Assembly (NCBI RefSeq): GCF_009296185.1
Contig: NZ_WBJR01000003.1
Location: 186,001 to 250,000 of the forward strand
Source of the DNA: Hydrogenovibrio sp. JE_KL2
Lineage (GTDB): Bacteria > Pseudomonadota > Gammaproteobacteria > Thiomicrospirales > Thiomicrospiraceae
Direction of reading: 5' to 3'
Length of the DNA: 64,000 bases
Every line of letters starts with the position of its first letter. Within the stretch, counting starts at the first letter, position 1. A program made the translations under genes and the position numbers. Positions 52,219 to 62,196 of the stretch are shown here, piece by piece. The notes beneath the pieces were generated by a model. It was not told the DNA's origin, did no database searches, and saw only the letters and a program-made list of their open reading frames with translations.

Positions 52219-52275
52219 ATTCAATTGGTCGGGACAGTAGGATTTGAACCTACGACCCCCGCCACCCCATGACGG
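52219..52275. repeat. Left attachment repeat (partial tRNA-Pro copy)
   Basis: This 57-bp sequence is identical to 58650-58706. It covers the tRNA 3' end, T arm, variable loop and anticodon region but lacks the 5' half, so it is not a functional tRNA. Typical of an att site left by site-specific integration into a tRNA 3' end. Confidence 0.93.
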
Positions 52276-52760: not shown

Positions 52761-53126
52761 GTGGGTATTGGAATGCTAGGATTATTGGGGTTAATCTTTT
52801 CTGTAGGTGGTCTAGCATTTGCGGTTTATGACCATTGGCCCGCGTCATATAATGAACTAATGCATAAAGACTTTTGGTTGGCCGTATCCGGTTGGTTGGC
52901 AGCACTTTTCTATTGCGCTTATTCATGTTATTTAAAATACTGTATTGAGAAAAAAAATATGACGATCAATTCTCTCAATAATCAAGGCCTAGAGATTGAA
53001 AGAAAATTAGCTTCAAAGCAAGAAGAATTGCATAGGTCAAATGGAACTATAGATTATTTGCATAGTTGCTTGAAGAAAGAGCTGAAGACAGAGTCCCCAA
53101 AACCTAGAACACCAAGTGGAGAATAA
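52761..53126 (+). CDS. Small two-helix membrane protein with coiled coil
   Basis: A 121-residue protein. Two membrane helices (about residues 3-22 and 39-60) are followed by a charged coiled-coil tail (SLNNQGLEIERKLASKQEEL). No family recognised. The start is GTG at 52761, with an in-frame ATG at 52773. It ends 1 bp before the beta-family gene's ATG at 53128, so the two are co-transcribed and probably co-functional, perhaps as a membrane partner. Confidence 0.65.
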   Translation: MGIGMLGLLGLIFSVGGLAFAVYDHWPASYNELMHKDFWLAVSGWLAALFYCAYSCYLKYCIEKKNMTINSLNNQGLEIERKLASKQEELHRSNGTIDYLHSCLKKELKTESPKPRTPSGE

Positions 53127-53127
53127 G

Positions 53128-54255
53128 ATGAAATATGAAGATTATTGTTATTTCCCAAAAATTAGAACACGTCAGGCGGAATTACTAGGTTTTGAGCAGT
53201 TAGAAGAGGGGACGAGAGCATCGATTTTACCATTGTTTTCTGTAACAACTTTGGGGCAGAGAAAAACAGTTTCTTCAGTTTTGGATGGGGTTAAAGAAAA
53301 ATTTTTTGAACGACTAGATTATTTTTTACTCGAATTTGAAAGTAATAAACACGTTAAGTGTGAAGATCTTGATTATTACTTATCTGAAGAAAATAATTTT
53401 GAAAAGTGGGTTTCTTTGCATAAGGAAATTGATGCGAAATCGAATCTTATTCCTGGATTAATTCCTGCAAGCTTTATCAATAATAGACGCCAGTATGTAA
53501 AACACATTCAAACGATGGAAGAGAATTTTGATCATTTTTTCATAAAAATTGATCCAATGAGAAAAAGAGATGTAACTGCAGCCGTTACAGTAGCTAGTAT
53601 TTGTAACAAGCTTGAAAACAAGCTTTTTATTATAGATGTTGGTCAGATAGATAAGTCAAGAATAAGTGTTATTGAGCAAGCTATTATTTTTGTTATTAAT
53701 GAAATAAGAGAAATAGATTCGTCAATTAATATTGTGGTTCAGGGGAGTAGTTTTCCAAGAAGTTTTGCTGATTATGGAAGAGAAGCAGGAACTATCCCTA
53801 TGTTAGAGTGGGACTTGTTTTCTCGACTTGGTGGAACAGAAGTTTGTTTTTATGGTGATTATGCTTCAATTCATGGGGAGTTTTATGAGGGAAGCTATGC
53901 TTCTTTTGTGGCGAGAGTGGATTTGCCTGCCGAGAAGATGTGGGTTTTTGAAAGAAGAACAGCTCCTGATCAAGAAAACATAAATAGAGAGCAGTTGTAC
54001 ATTTCAGCGGCTAAGGCAATAAAAGAAAACGATTTTTGGGATCCAGAATTGGATTGCTGGGGGAAAAAGATTGTTGATGTTGTGGCCTCTGGAAGAGTTG
54101 AAGGATTTAAATCCCCTGCAAAGTGGATTAGTGTCAGGTTAAACCTTCATATAGAAAGAATGCGGCAGTATATAGAGGCCGGTTTGCTGGATGGAGGTTC
54201 TTCTATAAATACTGACGATGAATTCTTAGATGAAGTTGATGATGATGCTTGGTAA
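53128..54255 (+). CDS. Beta-family protein (T4 beta-like)
   Basis: A 375-residue soluble protein. The N-terminal YCYFPKIRTRQAELLGFEQL followed by SILPLFSVTTLG is the recognisable opening of the beta protein family (phage T4 beta-like; PF14350 as I recall). Its biochemical role is unknown, but members occur next to sce7726-type genes in mobile regions, consistent with this locus. The ATG at 53128 has GGAG upstream. The C-terminus is acidic (DDEFLDEVDDDAW). It converges with the sce7726-like gene, with only a 3-bp gap. Confidence 0.7.
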   Translation: MKYEDYCYFPKIRTRQAELLGFEQLEEGTRASILPLFSVTTLGQRKTVSSVLDGVKEKFFERLDYFLLEFESNKHVKCEDLDYYLSEENNFEKWVSLHKEIDAKSNLIPGLIPASFINNRRQYVKHIQTMEENFDHFFIKIDPMRKRDVTAAVTVASICNKLENKLFIIDVGQIDKSRISVIEQAIIFVINEIREIDSSINIVVQGSSFPRSFADYGREAGTIPMLEWDLFSRLGGTEVCFYGDYASIHGEFYEGSYASFVARVDLPAEKMWVFERRTAPDQENINREQLYISAAKAIKENDFWDPELDCWGKKIVDVVASGRVEGFKSPAKWISVRLNLHIERMRQYIEAGLLDGGSSINTDDEFLDEVDDDAW

Positions 54256-54258
54256 TAC

Positions 54259-55053
54259 TTACTTAAAGTTAGGGGTACGCTTAATTGGTCGCATTTTGTT
54301 TTGTGTTGACTGAGCTAGTATATTCGCTATAAACATATCATCTTCTTTTTTTGCATTTGTTAGTGTGTTGTCTTGCGTTTTACTAGAAGATGCGGATAAG
54401 TGGTGAAGGCAACTAGGTTTGTAACCATTATTCTTGATGCTTTTCATAAAAGCATTATGGCGAGAACGATAGTTTTGCTTTAATGTTTCTATGGACAAGG
54501 TTCTGATGTCCTTGATAGATAGCACATTACTACAGAGCTCATAAAGCTCAGATCTAGATAAACTGTTTTTTACATTTACTTTTTTTTGTTTAAGTTTACT
54601 TAATATTTCTTTTTGGTTCACAAAAGAAAGTAAGTCGTTAGCACTCTTTTTGAGGGTTATTTTCCCTTTTTGAGCAACTTTGAATCGTAATTTCTGGCCA
54701 TCATTTTCGAACTCAATTACAGACGTGCTCGGTGAGGCAATCTCTAAGACTTTACTTGTGAATTTGGGTGCGCAAACTACGAAGACTTTATCAAAACGTT
54801 TATGGTAAAGTTTTAGTTGGCCTTCTAAGCGATCTAGAGAGTCATATTCACTTTTAATTTCAAATCCTAATAATTTTCCATTAGCGACAGCAATATCAAT
54901 TCTTCGTGCGAAAGAAGTTCTGCTTCGGTCTGCAACGGGTAGCTCATTAATAACTACAGCATCATTTAAATAACCGTTTTCTTCAAGCCATTCAATTAAA
55001 TGCAGTTTTATTGTTGATTCTGTATGTCGCATAGAATTTAGTTGGATTTTCAT
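54259..55053 (-). CDS. sce7726-like protein with PD-(D/E)XK nuclease motif
   Basis: A 264-residue protein. The N-terminal half resembles the sce7726 family: TIKLHLIEWLEENGY, FARRIDIAVANGKLLGFEIK, and SLDRLEGQLKLYHKRFDKVF. D53 and E65-x-K67 fit the catalytic triad of the PD-(D/E)XK nuclease fold. The C-terminal half is basic with Ser/Lys-rich segments and could bind nucleic acid. It is convergent with the beta-family gene, so the pair is tail to tail rather than an operon. A host-defence or DNA-processing role is a guess. Confidence 0.7.
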   Translation of the reverse strand: MKIQLNSMRHTESTIKLHLIEWLEENGYLNDAVVINELPVADRSRTSFARRIDIAVANGKLLGFEIKSEYDSLDRLEGQLKLYHKRFDKVFVVCAPKFTSKVLEIASPSTSVIEFENDGQKLRFKVAQKGKITLKKSANDLLSFVNQKEILSKLKQKKVNVKNSLSRSELYELCSNVLSIKDIRTLSIETLKQNYRSRHNAFMKSIKNNGYKPSCLHHLSASSSKTQDNTLTNAKKEDDMFIANILAQSTQNKMRPIKRTPNFK

Positions 55054-55133: not shown

Positions 55134-55440
<307 letters not shown>

Positions 55441-55715: not shown

Positions 55716-56765
55716 ATGGTTAATAACTCGTTCAAGATATTTCCTGAAAAACCGTCTTCTATAGAAGATTGGATGGGATTCAAATCAGATGGTACTTATC
55801 AAAGAGTAATAAGTAGTGTTCCGTTTTCTCGTTTAAACGACATCTCATTTCTTGGGGCGCTTGACTATACACAACAAACACAAATAAGCAAAAATGAACG
55901 AAATCGAGCAGTTCATTCTTTGTATGTTGCTGCATTAGCAAACTATATCTCAACAAAAAGAAACTACTCTGAAGACCTAAAAAAACATTTAATTATTGCT
56001 GCACTACTGCATGATATTGGTCACCCTCCTTTGTCGCACAGTGTCGAACCATACACAAAGCAATTTTTAGGTCTTGGACATCACGAATTAAGTGAAAACA
56101 TAATTCGAGGTCTTGCGCCAAAAAGCAAACCTTTAAATAGTTACTTGAACAAAATTGTAGATATTAATTTTGTACTGGACTTAATTAACCAAAATTCAAC
56201 TGAAGAAGGCTCTGACTTATTTAACAGTCCAATAAATATTGACACAATTGATGGTATTACAAGAGCTTACGCATATCTGAAAAACACCCAAAAAGTCGAT
56301 ATGGCAGAGAGTCGTTTAAAAATCGCAGAAGCATCTTTTTTGCATAATAGTTCATGTAATAATCAAAATATCCTTGATGAATTTTGGAGCAAAAAAGATC
56401 AGGTCTACAGGCTTTTAATTAATAGCAATGAAGGTTTACTATCAGATAAGGCAAGTGAACTATTTTTCCATACCCTCTCTTGCTCAGAGACGATTTCTGA
56501 AGGTGATCTTTATTCTTCTGAGCATTCATGGAGAAAGCAATATAAGAAGCTATTTTCTTCATTATTTGAAATAAGAGCTCGTGGTAGAAATGAAATCCCG
56601 TCTTGGCTAGAAAATAAAACAATTGATTACAAAGCACGTGTTTATAAAGTTGAAAATGTTCAGGAACAATTTAATCGTTACTCTTGTGTTAAACAAACCA
56701 AAGAACATAATTTTGGAAGAAAGAATATTTCTAAAAAGCTAACTGCAACTCCATTATTTCAGTGA
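55716..56765 (+). CDS. HD-domain hydrolase, dGTPase/SAMHD1-like
   Basis: A 349-residue HD-superfamily metalloenzyme. H67 in NRAVHSLYVAALA, H99-D100 in ALLHDIGHPPLSHS, and the later INIDTIDGITRAYAYL (the family's DxxDYxxRD-like block) match the dNTP triphosphohydrolase/SAMHD1-type pattern. Such enzymes cleave dNTPs or related nucleotides. Substrate cannot be told from sequence. It is the first gene of a three-gene operon: the nucleotidyltransferase starts 7 bp downstream. Low G+C and IS remnants on both sides suggest transfer. Confidence 0.82.
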   Translation: MVNNSFKIFPEKPSSIEDWMGFKSDGTYQRVISSVPFSRLNDISFLGALDYTQQTQISKNERNRAVHSLYVAALANYISTKRNYSEDLKKHLIIAALLHDIGHPPLSHSVEPYTKQFLGLGHHELSENIIRGLAPKSKPLNSYLNKIVDINFVLDLINQNSTEEGSDLFNSPINIDTIDGITRAYAYLKNTQKVDMAESRLKIAEASFLHNSSCNNQNILDEFWSKKDQVYRLLINSNEGLLSDKASELFFHTLSCSETISEGDLYSSEHSWRKQYKKLFSSLFEIRARGRNEIPSWLENKTIDYKARVYKVENVQEQFNRYSCVKQTKEHNFGRKNISKKLTATPLFQ

Positions 56766-56772
56766 GTAAAAC

Positions 56773-57771
56773 ATGGATTTTTTACAATTCACAAAGCCAT
56801 TTGAAATTATACACGCACACAATAATTTCACTATTGAAAAACTAAGCGAGATTAGAGATGCTTTAGCTGTCGCACTAAACAGCAGCGCCTATAAAGATAA
56901 TTTCACGATAGTCACTACTGGTTCATATGGAAGAGGAGAAGCGTCTCAGGAATCAGACATTGATTTAATTATTCTTGTTAATGACGAAAATATAGTTGAA
57001 GACAATTCAATCATCCAATCAGAGCTAAAACAAATAGCGGACATAATTTCGACTCTTGTCCCTGCTCCTACAGGATCAACAGGAACATTTGGAACTGATG
57101 AAATCCATTCGTATGATGAATTGACTAAAAATATTGGCGGAAACAAAGATACCAATATCACCATGACTCACCGTGTTTTATTACTGCTAGAAGGAACATG
57201 GCTTTTTAATGAAAATGGCTTCAAAGAGCTTCGAGCAAACTTATTATCAAAATATATTGCAGATGAGCAACCTGCAGGACAAATAACTAGCTTTCTGCTG
57301 AATGACATTATTAGATTTTATAGAACGATGACAACCGACTTTGCAAACAAAGTGTTTGAACGTGGTCAGTCATGGGGCTTAAGAAGCGTCAAACTGAGTT
57401 ATTCAAGAAAGCTACTATATTTTGGTGGCATAATAGCTGTCGCCGAAGCAGTGAATCATGAAAAACGCTCAGAAAAAATAGCCGCCATATCAGATCTTCT
57501 AGATGTATCTCCACTTGAAAGGATATGTCGAATCAATAATTCCAATGAACATACGAAAGAAGTATTTGAGGCATATGAGTATTTTCTAAAAATAATTTCT
57601 GATGCCGAAAAGAGAAAGCAGTTAAGTGAATTAAAAAAAATTGACAGAAATGAATCACCCGCATATCTAGAAATACGTGAAACTAGAAAAGAGTTTTCAC
57701 AAAAGCTCTCTTCATGGTTGTGCAATCATTATCAGGACGACCACCCGATTCACAATGCACTACTTTTCTGA
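56773..57771 (+). CDS. Nucleotidyltransferase-fold protein
   Basis: A 332-residue protein of the polymerase-beta-like nucleotidyltransferase superfamily. The signature TGSYGRGEASQESDIDL (GS...D-x-D, with D62 and D64) is complete; a third acidic residue is likely in the DEIHSYDELTK region. The C-terminal 200 residues are helical. It could transfer NMP to a protein, nucleotide or small molecule. It is operonic with the HD hydrolase before it and the phosphatase 5 bp after it. Confidence 0.82.
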   Translation: MDFLQFTKPFEIIHAHNNFTIEKLSEIRDALAVALNSSAYKDNFTIVTTGSYGRGEASQESDIDLIILVNDENIVEDNSIIQSELKQIADIISTLVPAPTGSTGTFGTDEIHSYDELTKNIGGNKDTNITMTHRVLLLLEGTWLFNENGFKELRANLLSKYIADEQPAGQITSFLLNDIIRFYRTMTTDFANKVFERGQSWGLRSVKLSYSRKLLYFGGIIAVAEAVNHEKRSEKIAAISDLLDVSPLERICRINNSNEHTKEVFEAYEYFLKIISDAEKRKQLSELKKIDRNESPAYLEIRETRKEFSQKLSSWLCNHYQDDHPIHNALLF

Positions 57772-57776
57772 TTTTG

Positions 57777-58292
57777 ATGAACAAACTACTGTTTATAAGA
57801 CACGCAGAAACAGACTTTAATAAACAAAATCTCTGGATGGGCTGCACAGACCACCCTCTCAATCAAACAGGAATGCTCCAAGCTCAATACACTGCGCTTG
57901 AACTTTCATCTACTAGATTAGATGCAATATACTCTAGCCCTCTTTCAAGAGCAGTTACCTCTGCAGAAACAATACAAAAGCACAACCTATCAAACCCTCC
58001 AATTTTCATACTGGATGGTCTAAAAGAACGCAACTTCGGTAAATTTGAAGGAAGAAAAAAGAGCGAGAAGAATAGAGAATTGCTGGAACTTTCAGATAGT
58101 GTAGAAACCGTCGATAATGTCAAAAAACGTGTAAAAGAAGCTCTTGCACAAATACCAAGACATGGTAATTACCTTATTGTCTCACACTCTGCCATATACA
58201 GAATTATACGTTCTGAGCTTGGCTTTCAATCTGCTCCAGACGTCCACAGTTTGCTGAATATGCAGTGCGTAGAGATTGTAGCGGTAAAATGA
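57777..58292 (+). CDS. Histidine phosphatase family protein
   Basis: A 171-residue phosphoglycerate-mutase-like phosphatase. LLFIRHAETDFN carries the catalytic RH(A/G) motif; SSPLSRAVTSAETI, LKERNFGKFEGR and VSHSAIYRII carry the other active-site residues. These enzymes often act on small phosphorylated metabolites such as alpha-ribazole phosphate or nucleotides. I use the ATG at 57777; upstream in-frame starts overlap the nucleotidyltransferase gene. The stop overlaps the start of the next IS3 remnant. Confidence 0.8.
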   Translation: MNKLLFIRHAETDFNKQNLWMGCTDHPLNQTGMLQAQYTALELSSTRLDAIYSSPLSRAVTSAETIQKHNLSNPPIFILDGLKERNFGKFEGRKKSEKNRELLELSDSVETVDNVKKRVKEALAQIPRHGNYLIVSHSAIYRIIRSELGFQSAPDVHSLLNMQCVEIVAVK

Positions 58293-58419
58293 AGCACGCC
58301 AAGACATTTTTGATTACATCGAAATGTTTTACAATCCTAAACGACGTCATTCTTCTAACAATCAACTCTCACCGGTTGAATACGAGAAGCAGTACGAAAT
58401 GAGGCTAAAAAGTCTCTAG
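58291..58419 (+). pseudogene. Second IS3-family transposase remnant (extreme C-terminus)
   Basis: A 42-codon frame, EARQDIFDYIEMFYNPKRRH and SSNNQLSPVEYEKQYEMRL, is the usual end of an IS3-family orfB (DYIExFYNxxRxHSxLxxLSPxxYE). Its type differs from the remnant at 55143, so it comes from another element. It starts exactly where the phosphatase gene ends, so the joint is probably an old recombination point. Confidence 0.85.
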
Positions 58420-58649: not shown

Positions 58650-58706
58650 ATTCAATTGGTCGGGACAGTAGGATTTGAACCTACGACCCCCGCCACCCCA
58701 TGACGG
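58650..58706. repeat. Right attachment repeat, within the tRNA-Pro gene
   Basis: Identical over 57 bp to 52219-52275. It begins 7 bp past the tRNA 3' end and runs into the anticodon stem. Confidence 0.93.
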
Positions 58707-58733
58707 TGCTCTACCAGGCTGAGCCATGCCCCG
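58657..58733 (-). tRNA. tRNA-Pro (anticodon GGG)
   Basis: The minus strand reads CGGGGCATGGCTCAGCC at the 5' end and TGTCCCGACCA at the 3' end, 77 nt with encoded CCA. The acceptor stem pairs CGGGGCA with TGTCCCG. The anticodon loop ATGGGGT gives GGG. The T arm GTAGG-TTCGAAT-CCTAC is canonical. It is the integration target of the island. Confidence 0.95.
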
Positions 58734-61424: not shown

Positions 61425-61529
61425 TTGTACTGGGTTGCATTATTTTCTCTCATTTCTGACAACGCTATTTTGTACTGTGGTTTAATGTTTATGGTTGAGT
61501 CAGAACTTTCACACAATTATTTTGTACTG
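61425..61529 (+). repeat. Three spaced TTGTACTG motifs, candidate TnsB binding sites
   Basis: TTGTACTG occurs at 61425-61432, 61470-61477 and 61522-61529, with starts 45 and 52 bp apart, all in the same orientation, in the region between hslO and tnsA. Tn7-type ends carry several repeated transposase sites of this kind. Assignment is inference. Confidence 0.6.
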
Positions 61530-61542
61530 GATGAAAAGTTAT

Positions 61543-62196
61543 ATGCCTGCTAGAACTATTCCTAAAAACTATCGAAATGTGACGGGAATTCATGCATCCG
61601 TCAAATCTGAAGAGCAGGCGATGTTTGAGTCAACTCTTGAGAGAGATTTTATCACACTACTCGAATTCGATAATTCCATAATTAGCTTTAAGGTTCAGCC
61701 TGTCGAAGTTAAGTGGACAGACCAAAACGGTAAAAACCGCTCCTATTTTCCAGATATGTTGTTTAAGCGAAAGACCAAAGCTGGTGTTGAAGAAGTACTG
61801 GTCGAGGTGAAATATCGTTCAGACCTCAAAGAAGACTGGAACGAACTTAAACCAAAGTTGAAAGCTGGTTTGCGGTATGCCAAACAACATGGCTGGAAAT
61901 TCAAAATTATGACGGAGGTTGAAATTCGAACCACTCTGCTAAAAAACGCTAAGTTTTTAAGGTCGTTTATTAGACGAGGCGCAGATCGCGAAGGTGATAT
62001 GGAACTGATAGATTCAAAGTTACATGAACTGAAGAGAACCACGCCAAAAGCACTGTTGGAAAAGTTGGCTTATAGCGATTGGGATAAAGCGGCGTTGCTT
62101 CCGACGCTATGGTATTTGGTCGGCACACGACAAATCGGTTGTGACCTTCAGGGTGAACAACTCAATATGAATACTCCTATATATTGGAAACCTTAA
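61543..62196 (+). CDS. tnsA: TnsA-type transposon endonuclease
   Basis: About 217 residues. The PD-(D/E)XK endonuclease that makes the 5' cuts in Tn7-type transposition, allowing cut-and-paste. The catalytic residues fit E29 (AMFESTLERDF), D71 (RSYFPDMLFKR) and E88-x-K90 (VLVEVKYRSDL). A C-terminal TnsA domain follows (LEKLAYSDWDKAALLPTLWY). The ATG at 61543 is chosen; an ATG at 61531 and a TTG at 61495 are upstream. tnsB starts 11 bp after the stop. Confidence 0.9.
   Translation: MPARTIPKNYRNVTGIHASVKSEEQAMFESTLERDFITLLEFDNSIISFKVQPVEVKWTDQNGKNRSYFPDMLFKRKTKAGVEEVLVEVKYRSDLKEDWNELKPKLKAGLRYAKQHGWKFKIMTEVEIRTTLLKNAKFLRSFIRRGADREGDMELIDSKLHELKRTTPKALLEKLAYSDWDKAALLPTLWYLVGTRQIGCDLQGEQLNMNTPIYWKP

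What the first reader, a model, noticed from the sequence alone, without database searches (positions are those of the whole stretch)
55716..58292. HD hydrolase - nucleotidyltransferase - histidine phosphatase operon, candidate undescribed system
Three genes with 5-7-bp spacings encode an SAMHD1-like HD hydrolase, a GS...DxD nucleotidyltransferase and a phosphoglycerate-mutase-like phosphatase. All three act on nucleotides or phosphate esters, and the block lies on an island between IS3 remnants. A nucleotide-depletion or nucleotide-modification defence, or a metabolic cassette, is possible. I know of no named system with exactly this trio.
Basis: partly seen in the sequence, partly recalled or inferred. 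Interest (0 to 1): 0.75.

Follow-up and report, generated by a model that had tools for sequence, protein, structure and literature searches.

The report
Guarded nucleotide-destroying operon, likely phage defence
A mobile bacterial gene set pairs an enzyme that probably destroys DNA building blocks with a partner enzyme that probably keeps it switched off until a virus attacks; it looks like a recently described defence called Clover but is built from different parts.

Summary
The three genes are there and intact, 7 and 5 bp apart. The core across genomes is HD plus NTase: 60 of the 80 best NTase relatives in GTDB contigs have the HD gene beside them (56 same strand with HD first, 3 fused, 1 convergent); the phosphatase follows in 17 of those 60. 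The HD protein is a SAMHD1/EF1143-type dNTPase by sequence, active site and predicted fold. The NTase matches PADLOC's candidate PDC-M70A, but the PDC-M70B model is a TIM barrel, so HD-NTase is a different pair. Its predicted fold is nearest protein AMPylases, GlnE and DrrA. In layout it matches Clover (PMC12265719), but a strain named in that paper carries Clover-like genes besides this pair, and the two NTases are not detectably related. The block lies with beta and cll on a 6.4-kb low-GC island between 57-bp tRNA-Pro repeats. Most likely: an anti-phage dNTPase restrained by its NTase. New variant of a known kind; function untested.

The parts
52219..52275 (.). 57-bp direct repeat, left copy (3' end of tRNA-Pro plus 7 bp)
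   Evidence: 100% identical to 58650-58706, the only two copies in the window
52761..53126 (+). 121-aa ORF, possible divergent gop-like gene
   Evidence: only a weak PADLOC gop match, E=0.034; inconclusive
53116..54255 (+). beta gene of a gop-beta-cll type anti-phage system
   Evidence: Pfam Beta_protein 1.2e-39; PADLOC beta 3e-71
54259..55053 (-). cll gene (sce7726 family)
   Evidence: PADLOC cll 3e-77; NCBIfam NF033832 3.6e-36
55200..55440 (+). decayed IS3-type transposase remnant, left (approximate, shifts between frames)
   Evidence: six-frame reading; IS3 label by eye, no profile run
55716..56765 (+). SAMHD1/EF1143-type HD dNTP triphosphohydrolase, proposed effector
   Evidence: R64 H67 H99 D100 H103 H108 E111 H123 D176 invariant in the 44 aligned proteins
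56773..57771 (+). Pol-beta-superfamily nucleotidyltransferase with GlnE/DrrA-like predicted fold, proposed restraint
   Evidence: G50 S51 D62 D64 invariant in the 46 aligned proteins
57777..58292 (+). histidine phosphatase (branch 1), optional accessory
   Evidence: Pfam 4.1e-31; R8 H9 R58 E84 H137 invariant in the 15 aligned proteins
58288..58419 (+). IS3-type transposase C-terminal remnant, right (overlaps the last codons of the phosphatase in another frame)
   Evidence: reading by eye; 58287-58437 matches three places of G281 at 95-97%
58650..58706 (.). 57-bp direct repeat, right copy, reaching into the intact tRNA-Pro
58657..58733 (-). tRNA-Pro(ggg), insertion site of the island
   Evidence: further repeat copies near the same tRNA in relatives G283 and G276

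Best explanation
A mobile anti-phage module. The HD protein is a SAMHD1-type enzyme that strips triphosphate from dNTPs and starves phage replication when switched on (inferred from homology and active site). It would harm the cell if always active, so the partner NTase, made from the same operon and sometimes on the same polypeptide, keeps it off until infection changes the nucleotide pool or disables the NTase (inferred from Clover). Because the NTase fold is nearest GlnE and DrrA, I think it slightly more likely that it adenylylates the HD protein directly than that it makes a diffusible inhibitor; the sequence does not settle this. The phosphatase is an optional tuning gene acting on a nucleotide or phosphate ester of the cycle (inferred). 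Shown here: the gene set, its conservation, intact catalytic residues, folds by prediction, the mobile and partly defensive context. Not shown: any activity, toxicity or protection. The stated confidence covers the restrained-dNTPase defence whatever the chemistry of the restraint.
For: HD-NTase adjacency in 60 of 80 relatives, incl. 3 fusions and 56 same-strand HD-first pairs with gaps of at most 40 bp. HD-linked NTases fall on one side of one branch (SH-aLRT 90; 1 change against 22.8 in shuffles). HD profile: EF1143 5e-23, SAMHD1 2e-15; HD model pLDDT 90, Z 23.1 over 300 residues to 2o6i and 22.1 over 304 to SAMHD1 4bzc. NTase model pLDDT 93, Z 14.6/259 DrrA, 13.9/263 and 12.8/271 GlnE, 8.8/116 MNT, 6.1/84 HalB. 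Same gene order as the Clover-like pair. tRNA-flanked low-GC island with beta-cll. PADLOC defence genes within 6 kb: 18 hand-picked neighbours in 14 of the 60 loci were scanned, 16 matched, in 12 loci; 5 further loci carry genes of the same clusters. HD gene in no other of 11 congeneric genomes; pair on a 4.5-kb E. coli plasmid.
Against: No functional data. Neighbours scanned with PADLOC were picked by eye, 46 of 60 loci had none scanned, and no background rate was measured; two scanned neighbours (L045 ATPase, L048 HipA-like by eye) had no match. L021 and L023 lie in sugar-nucleotide clusters, L029 beside citrate synthase. Residues after the last metal aspartate differ from known dNTPases (DTxxG here, DRMDY in EF1143, DDIAY in the Clover-like protein), so the substrate may not be a common dNTP. 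The NTase is in large part a helical bundle, where Z values near 13 can be a common arrangement (note). Matches to the dGTPase, MntA and HalB family models are all below their cut-offs.
Confidence: 0.6

Rival explanations
1. Clover-like chemistry (a rival only to the adenylylation step, inside the same restrained-dNTPase idea): the NTase makes a small (deoxy)nucleotide that binds the HD enzyme and blocks it; the phosphatase, where present, trims its 5' phosphates and so lowers the threshold.
For: Clover works so with the same two enzyme classes and gene order; p3diT without its 5' phosphates had no detectable inhibitory effect (PMC12265719). A phosphomonoesterase fits a phosphorylated nucleotide better than a protein-AMP bond (general knowledge).
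Against: NTase not detectably related by sequence to the Clover-like NTase (BLAST E 0.73, hhalign probability 1.4%); predicted fold nearer AMPylases than HalB; no phosphatase directly downstream in 43 of 60 loci.
Confidence: 0.25
2. Toxin-antitoxin / plasmid-maintenance pair without a dedicated anti-phage role: HD toxin, NTase antitoxin that modifies it, as in type VII HEPN-MNT.
For: NTase matches the MntA antitoxin model (2.2e-5, below its cut-off) and MNT structures (Z 8.8); found on a 4.5-kb E. coli plasmid; AbiE genes near four of the loci.
Against: Siting beside diverse defence systems and a dNTPase effector type with defence precedents.
Confidence: 0.17
3. Metabolic cassette: nucleotide or sugar-phosphate modification, e.g. 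in surface polysaccharide synthesis.
For: L021 and L023 lie among sugar-nucleotide genes; L017, L019, L024 similar by eye and cluster; a distant NTase plus phosphatase without HD sits in a glycosyltransferase cluster in Rhizobium.
Against: Flanking genes are largely unshared between loci; dNTPase active site; tRNA-flanked island here.
Confidence: 0.12

Closest known systems
Clover (CloA dNTPase + CloB NTase; PMC12265719)
   Same: two-gene dNTPase-NTase operon; HD motif and HE dyad with the same spacing (H99 D100 ... H108 E111 here; H117 D118 ... H126 E129 there)
   Different: HD is SAMHD1/EF1143-like, 349 aa, no HD_assoc domain; NTase 332 aa of another family; a phosphatase in 17 of 60 loci; M. 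symbioticum SB0023/3 carries both kinds
PADLOC PDC-M70 (candidate)
   Same: NTase matches PDC-M70A, 5.1e-55
   Different: the PDC-M70B model hits a xylose-isomerase-like TIM barrel, not an HD enzyme; HD-linked and TIM-linked NTases separate on the tree
SAMHD1 / EF1143 dNTPases
   Same: whole-length predicted fold and metal-site residues
   Different: shorter, NTase partner, different residues after the last metal aspartate
Stand-alone anti-phage dGTPase
   Same: HD dNTPase effector
   Different: 24.3 bits against a 400-bit cut-off for NF041026; described as a single gene (recalled)
Type VII toxin-antitoxin HEPN-MNT
   Same: NTase that may silence a toxic partner by NMP transfer (abstract starts of PMC11586414 and PMC7641770 seen)
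   Different: HD dNTPase instead of HEPN RNase; MNT structures align with only about 98-120 of the 332 residues
Hailong (HalA/HalB)
   Same: NTase as negative regulator (as told in PMC12265719)
   Different: 16.1 bits against a 190-bit cut-off for HalB; effector differs (recalled)

Membership tests
Clover | dNTPase with HD motif and HE dyad next to an NTase with a DxD motif | tested here: met
Clover | NTase homologous to CloB (the paper used BLAST E 0.005) | tested here: not met
   against the Clover-like NTase of M. symbioticum (L100; identified by inference, not by the paper's accession): E 0.73, hhalign 1.4%. The Salmonella CloB itself was not available
Clover | CloA-type dGTPase with C-terminal regulatory region holding the dTTP site (residues up to Y452) | tested here: not met
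   349 aa; Pfam HD only, whereas L100 has HD + HD_assoc; TIGR01353 36.8 bits against cut-off 152
Clover | p3diT made by NTase, dTTP activates, phage protection | not testable with these tools
   needs bench work
PADLOC PDC-M70 | NTase PDC-M70A | tested here: met
   5.1e-55
PADLOC PDC-M70 | partner PDC-M70B | tested here: not met
   no PDC-M70B match in HD or phosphatase; that model hits the TIM barrels of L004 and L080
SAMHD1/EF1143-like dNTPase | metal ligands H, HD, D and catalytic His/acid dyad, whole-length fold | tested here: met
   (fold by prediction)
Anti-phage dGTPase NF041026 | curated cut-off | tested here: not met
   24.3 of 400 bits
Type VII TA (MntA) | MntA cut-off and HEPN partner | tested here: not met
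   24.3 of 60 bits; partner is HD
Hailong | HalB cut-off | tested here: not met
   16.1 of 190 bits
gop-beta-cll (neighbour) | beta and cll | tested here: met
   3e-71, 3e-77
gop-beta-cll (neighbour) | gop | tested here: inconclusive
   E=0.034

The most novel reading that the evidence does not exclude
A second, independently assembled dNTPase-NTase immune system, in which a SAMHD1-type effector is silenced by direct adenylylation from a GlnE/DrrA-like protein AMPylase (a guard by covalent modification rather than by a nucleotide signal), with an NTase family that elsewhere partners a TIM-barrel protein.
Probability: 0.3. Interest if true: 0.78.

Novelty: new variant of a known kind. Interest (0 to 1): 0.62.

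Why it matters
It would show that pairing a dNTPase effector with a restraining nucleotidyltransferase arose more than once, here from a SAMHD1-like enzyme and an AMPylase-like one. It gives a concrete, cheap test of whether immune effectors of the SAMHD1 class can be controlled by covalent NMP transfer, and it gives an HD partner and a likely function to a branch of a PADLOC candidate NTase family.

Tried and rejected
Trio as an obligate unit: rejected, phosphatase in 17 of 60 loci. Direct membership in PDC-M70: rejected. Phage carriage: no NTase match in 50,697 phage records, two weak HD-only matches there, no relative in the viral-contig scan (single-sequence query, close relatives only). 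Integrase enrichment (50 of 60 genomes): matches listed only in part and contigs not mapped to my loci, so no conclusion. Island integrase: none recognised among the ORFs and six-frame readings. One or several origins of the phosphatase: 5 changes on the NTase tree, phosphatase tree weakly resolved between the two clades; undecided. In the VIA list for the HD model no entry labelled CloA was among the 50 rows shown; this says nothing either way. A class-wide search gave 3 distant NTases in 274 genomes besides the window's own; their fetched stretches (3.6-3.8 kb) show no HD match.

Full report
Observation. The window holds three complete, co-directional genes: HD 55716-56765, NTase 56773-57771, histidine phosphatase 57777-58292, with gaps of 7 and 5 bp. 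Pfam gives HD (4.7e-10), NTP_transf_2 (7.4e-9) and His_Phos_1 (4.1e-31).

Island. A 57-bp perfect direct repeat lies at 52219-52275 and 58650-58706, the second reaching into an intact tRNA-Pro(ggg) at 58657-58733. The 6.4 kb between them has 34.6% GC against 44.2% for the rest of the window, lower than any of 92 overlapping windows of equal size in the left flank (minimum 39.5%). It holds beta (PADLOC 3e-71) and cll (3e-77); the 121-aa ORF before them matches gop only weakly (0.034). Rousset et al. 2022 (PMC9122126; passages seen) report that gop-beta-cII of satellite P4 protects against lambda and P1. In the related genome G283 the same tRNA-Pro has a further repeat copy (52 bp) about 18 kb away, and the DNA between holds a PDC-M30 pair and another HD-domain protein; G276 has three repeat copies. 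So this tRNA is a recurrent insertion site. No integrase was recognised in the window's island.

Distribution. Of 11 genomes of the genus only the window's own has the HD protein; of 28 relatives only the own genome has beta. The NTase has no match in 50,697 phage records and 4 in 72,556 plasmid records; one is a 4.5-kb E. coli plasmid with an HD gene (39% and 65% identity in its two pieces) and NTase (40%) and no phosphatase ORF seen; its NTase gene is found by DNA search in 1 of 5,426 E. coli genomes. A profile of five NTases (two from HD pairs) against GTDB contigs gave 144 relatives, of which the best 80 were kept. In 60 of these 80 the HD gene is adjacent: 56 same strand with HD first and at most 40 bp apart or overlapping (overlaps are overstated by open-frame starts), 3 fused into one frame (three Pseudomonas), 1 convergent (L033); the phosphatase directly follows in 17 of the 60. 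The other 20 show no HD match in the stretch held; 15 of them have the TIM-barrel gene. On a tree of 88 NTases the 62 HD-linked ones (60 plus window and E. coli plasmid) are on one side of one branch (SH-aLRT 90; 1 change, shuffled mean 22.8); long branches make details unsure. The 64 relatives beyond the best 80 were not seen.

Neighbourhoods. Neighbours were read by eye; 18 hand-picked ones in 14 of the 60 loci were scanned with PADLOC. Sixteen matched, in 12 loci: AbiEii in L017, L041, L055; AbiEi in L019; PD-Lambda-5 A and B in L031; PDC-M30 proteins in L049 and L053; AbiLi (and weakly AbiLii) in L058; HsdS in L062; a SIR2 Argonaute-associated type protein in L064; a Pycsar cyclase and an E2 protein in L069; PtuA in L078. 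Five more loci (L060, L061, L070, L073, L074) carry genes of the same clusters. L045 and L048 candidates were negative. Against this, L021 and L023 lie among sugar-nucleotide genes and L029 beside citrate synthase. There is no background rate and 46 loci were not scanned, so this is an association, not a measured enrichment.

HD protein. In 44 aligned proteins (of 62 HD-linked loci; fused, partial, overlong and some near-identical ones left out) R64, H67, H99, D100, H103, H108, E111, H123 and D176 never vary. The profile finds EF1143 (2o6i, 5e-23; the name EF1143 is recalled) and SAMHD1 (2e-15) ahead of the anti-phage dGTPase 9p8w (1.3e-6) (that 9P8W is this enzyme). The model (pLDDT 90, pTM 0.89) matches 2o6i with Z 23.1, rmsd 3.7, 300 aligned, and SAMHD1 4bzc with Z 22.1, 3.8, 304. 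After the metal aspartate the family reads DTxxG where 2o6i reads DRMDY, so substrate choice may differ.

NTase. G50, S51, D62 and D64 never vary in 46 aligned proteins (of 62). PADLOC names it PDC-M70A (5.1e-55); the PDC-M70B model hits the TIM-barrel protein of L004 and L080 (2.2e-105 and 1.4e-86). The model (pLDDT 93) matches over most of its length the AMPylase DrrA (Z 14.6, rmsd 4.6, 259) and both GlnE domains (13.9, 5.1, 263; 12.8, 5.8, 271), then MNT (8.8, 3.8, 116) and HalB (6.1, 3.7, 84). That DrrA and GlnE adenylylate proteins is recalled knowledge.

Phosphatase. R8, H9, R58, E84 and H137 are invariant in 15 aligned proteins (window and 14 of 17 loci), a complete histidine-phosphatase site (motif recalled).

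Clover. PMC12265719 (preprint 2025; abstract, first eighth of the text, sections 4, 5, 7, 9, 23, 26, 28 and search passages seen) describes a dGTPase CloA and an NTase CloB that makes p3diT to restrain it; loss of CloB activity is toxic. Its Figure 1 legend names Methylobacterium symbioticum SB0023/3, the organism of L041. That genome has three dGTPase-family genes over the cut-off; two (L098, L100) are followed by an NTase of 281 and 266 aa, and L100 shows an HD...HQGE stretch and a DDIAY stretch with the spacing of the residues that the paper numbers 117-129 and 242-246. I infer that these are Clover operons. The HD-NTase pair of L041 is additional. The window NTase and the L100 NTase are not detectably related (E 0.73; hhalign 1.4%), the HD proteins only across the HD core (3e-5 over 107 residues; 59%). 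Hence it resembles Clover in layout and enzyme classes but is not a member by the tests made.

Judgement. A dNTPase effector with an NTase restraint, on mobile DNA, for phage defence: 0.6. For the restraint I lean to adenylylation of the HD protein on the fold evidence, with a nucleotide inhibitor as the main rival.

Print status. PDC-M70, and combinations of nucleotidyltransferase or adenylyltransferase with histidine phosphatase, HD domain, dGTPase, SAMHD1 or dNTPase in a defence setting, were searched in the PMC library; judged by titles and abstract starts in the listings, only the Clover preprint was relevant. Most subscription papers are absent from that library.

Noticed in passing
window 61495-62196 and 62184 to the window end (+): TnsA-like endonuclease (PF08722 1.9e-21) followed by a long open frame that reads by eye like a TnsB-type transposase: a possible Tn7-like element next to an Hsp33-like gene (by eye).
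   Followed up: partly
L103 1590-3020 (-) and 4023-6062 (+): The same tRNA-Pro site in related genome G283 holds a PDC-M30A/B pair (three-Cys-motif type, by eye) and a separate 476-aa HD-domain protein, so the site collects candidate defence genes.
   Followed up: partly
L049, L053, L060, L061, L070, L074: Genes of the PDC-M30 clusters recur beside HD-NTase in six loci (two confirmed by PADLOC).
   Followed up: partly
15 loci among L065-L094, and L004, L005: The sister NTases stand beside a xylose-isomerase-like TIM barrel (PADLOC PDC-M70); function unknown, the pairing spans several phyla.
   Followed up: partly
L003 6920-8615: A distant NTase plus a histidine phosphatase, without HD, in a glycosyltransferase cluster of a Rhizobium plasmid.
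   Followed up: no
L033 5570-7617: Convergent NTase and HD genes 2 bp apart, the only non-operon arrangement among 60.
   Followed up: no
L069 2319-7512: Pycsar cyclase, prokaryotic E2 protein, HD, NTase and phosphatase stand in one same-strand block.
   Followed up: partly
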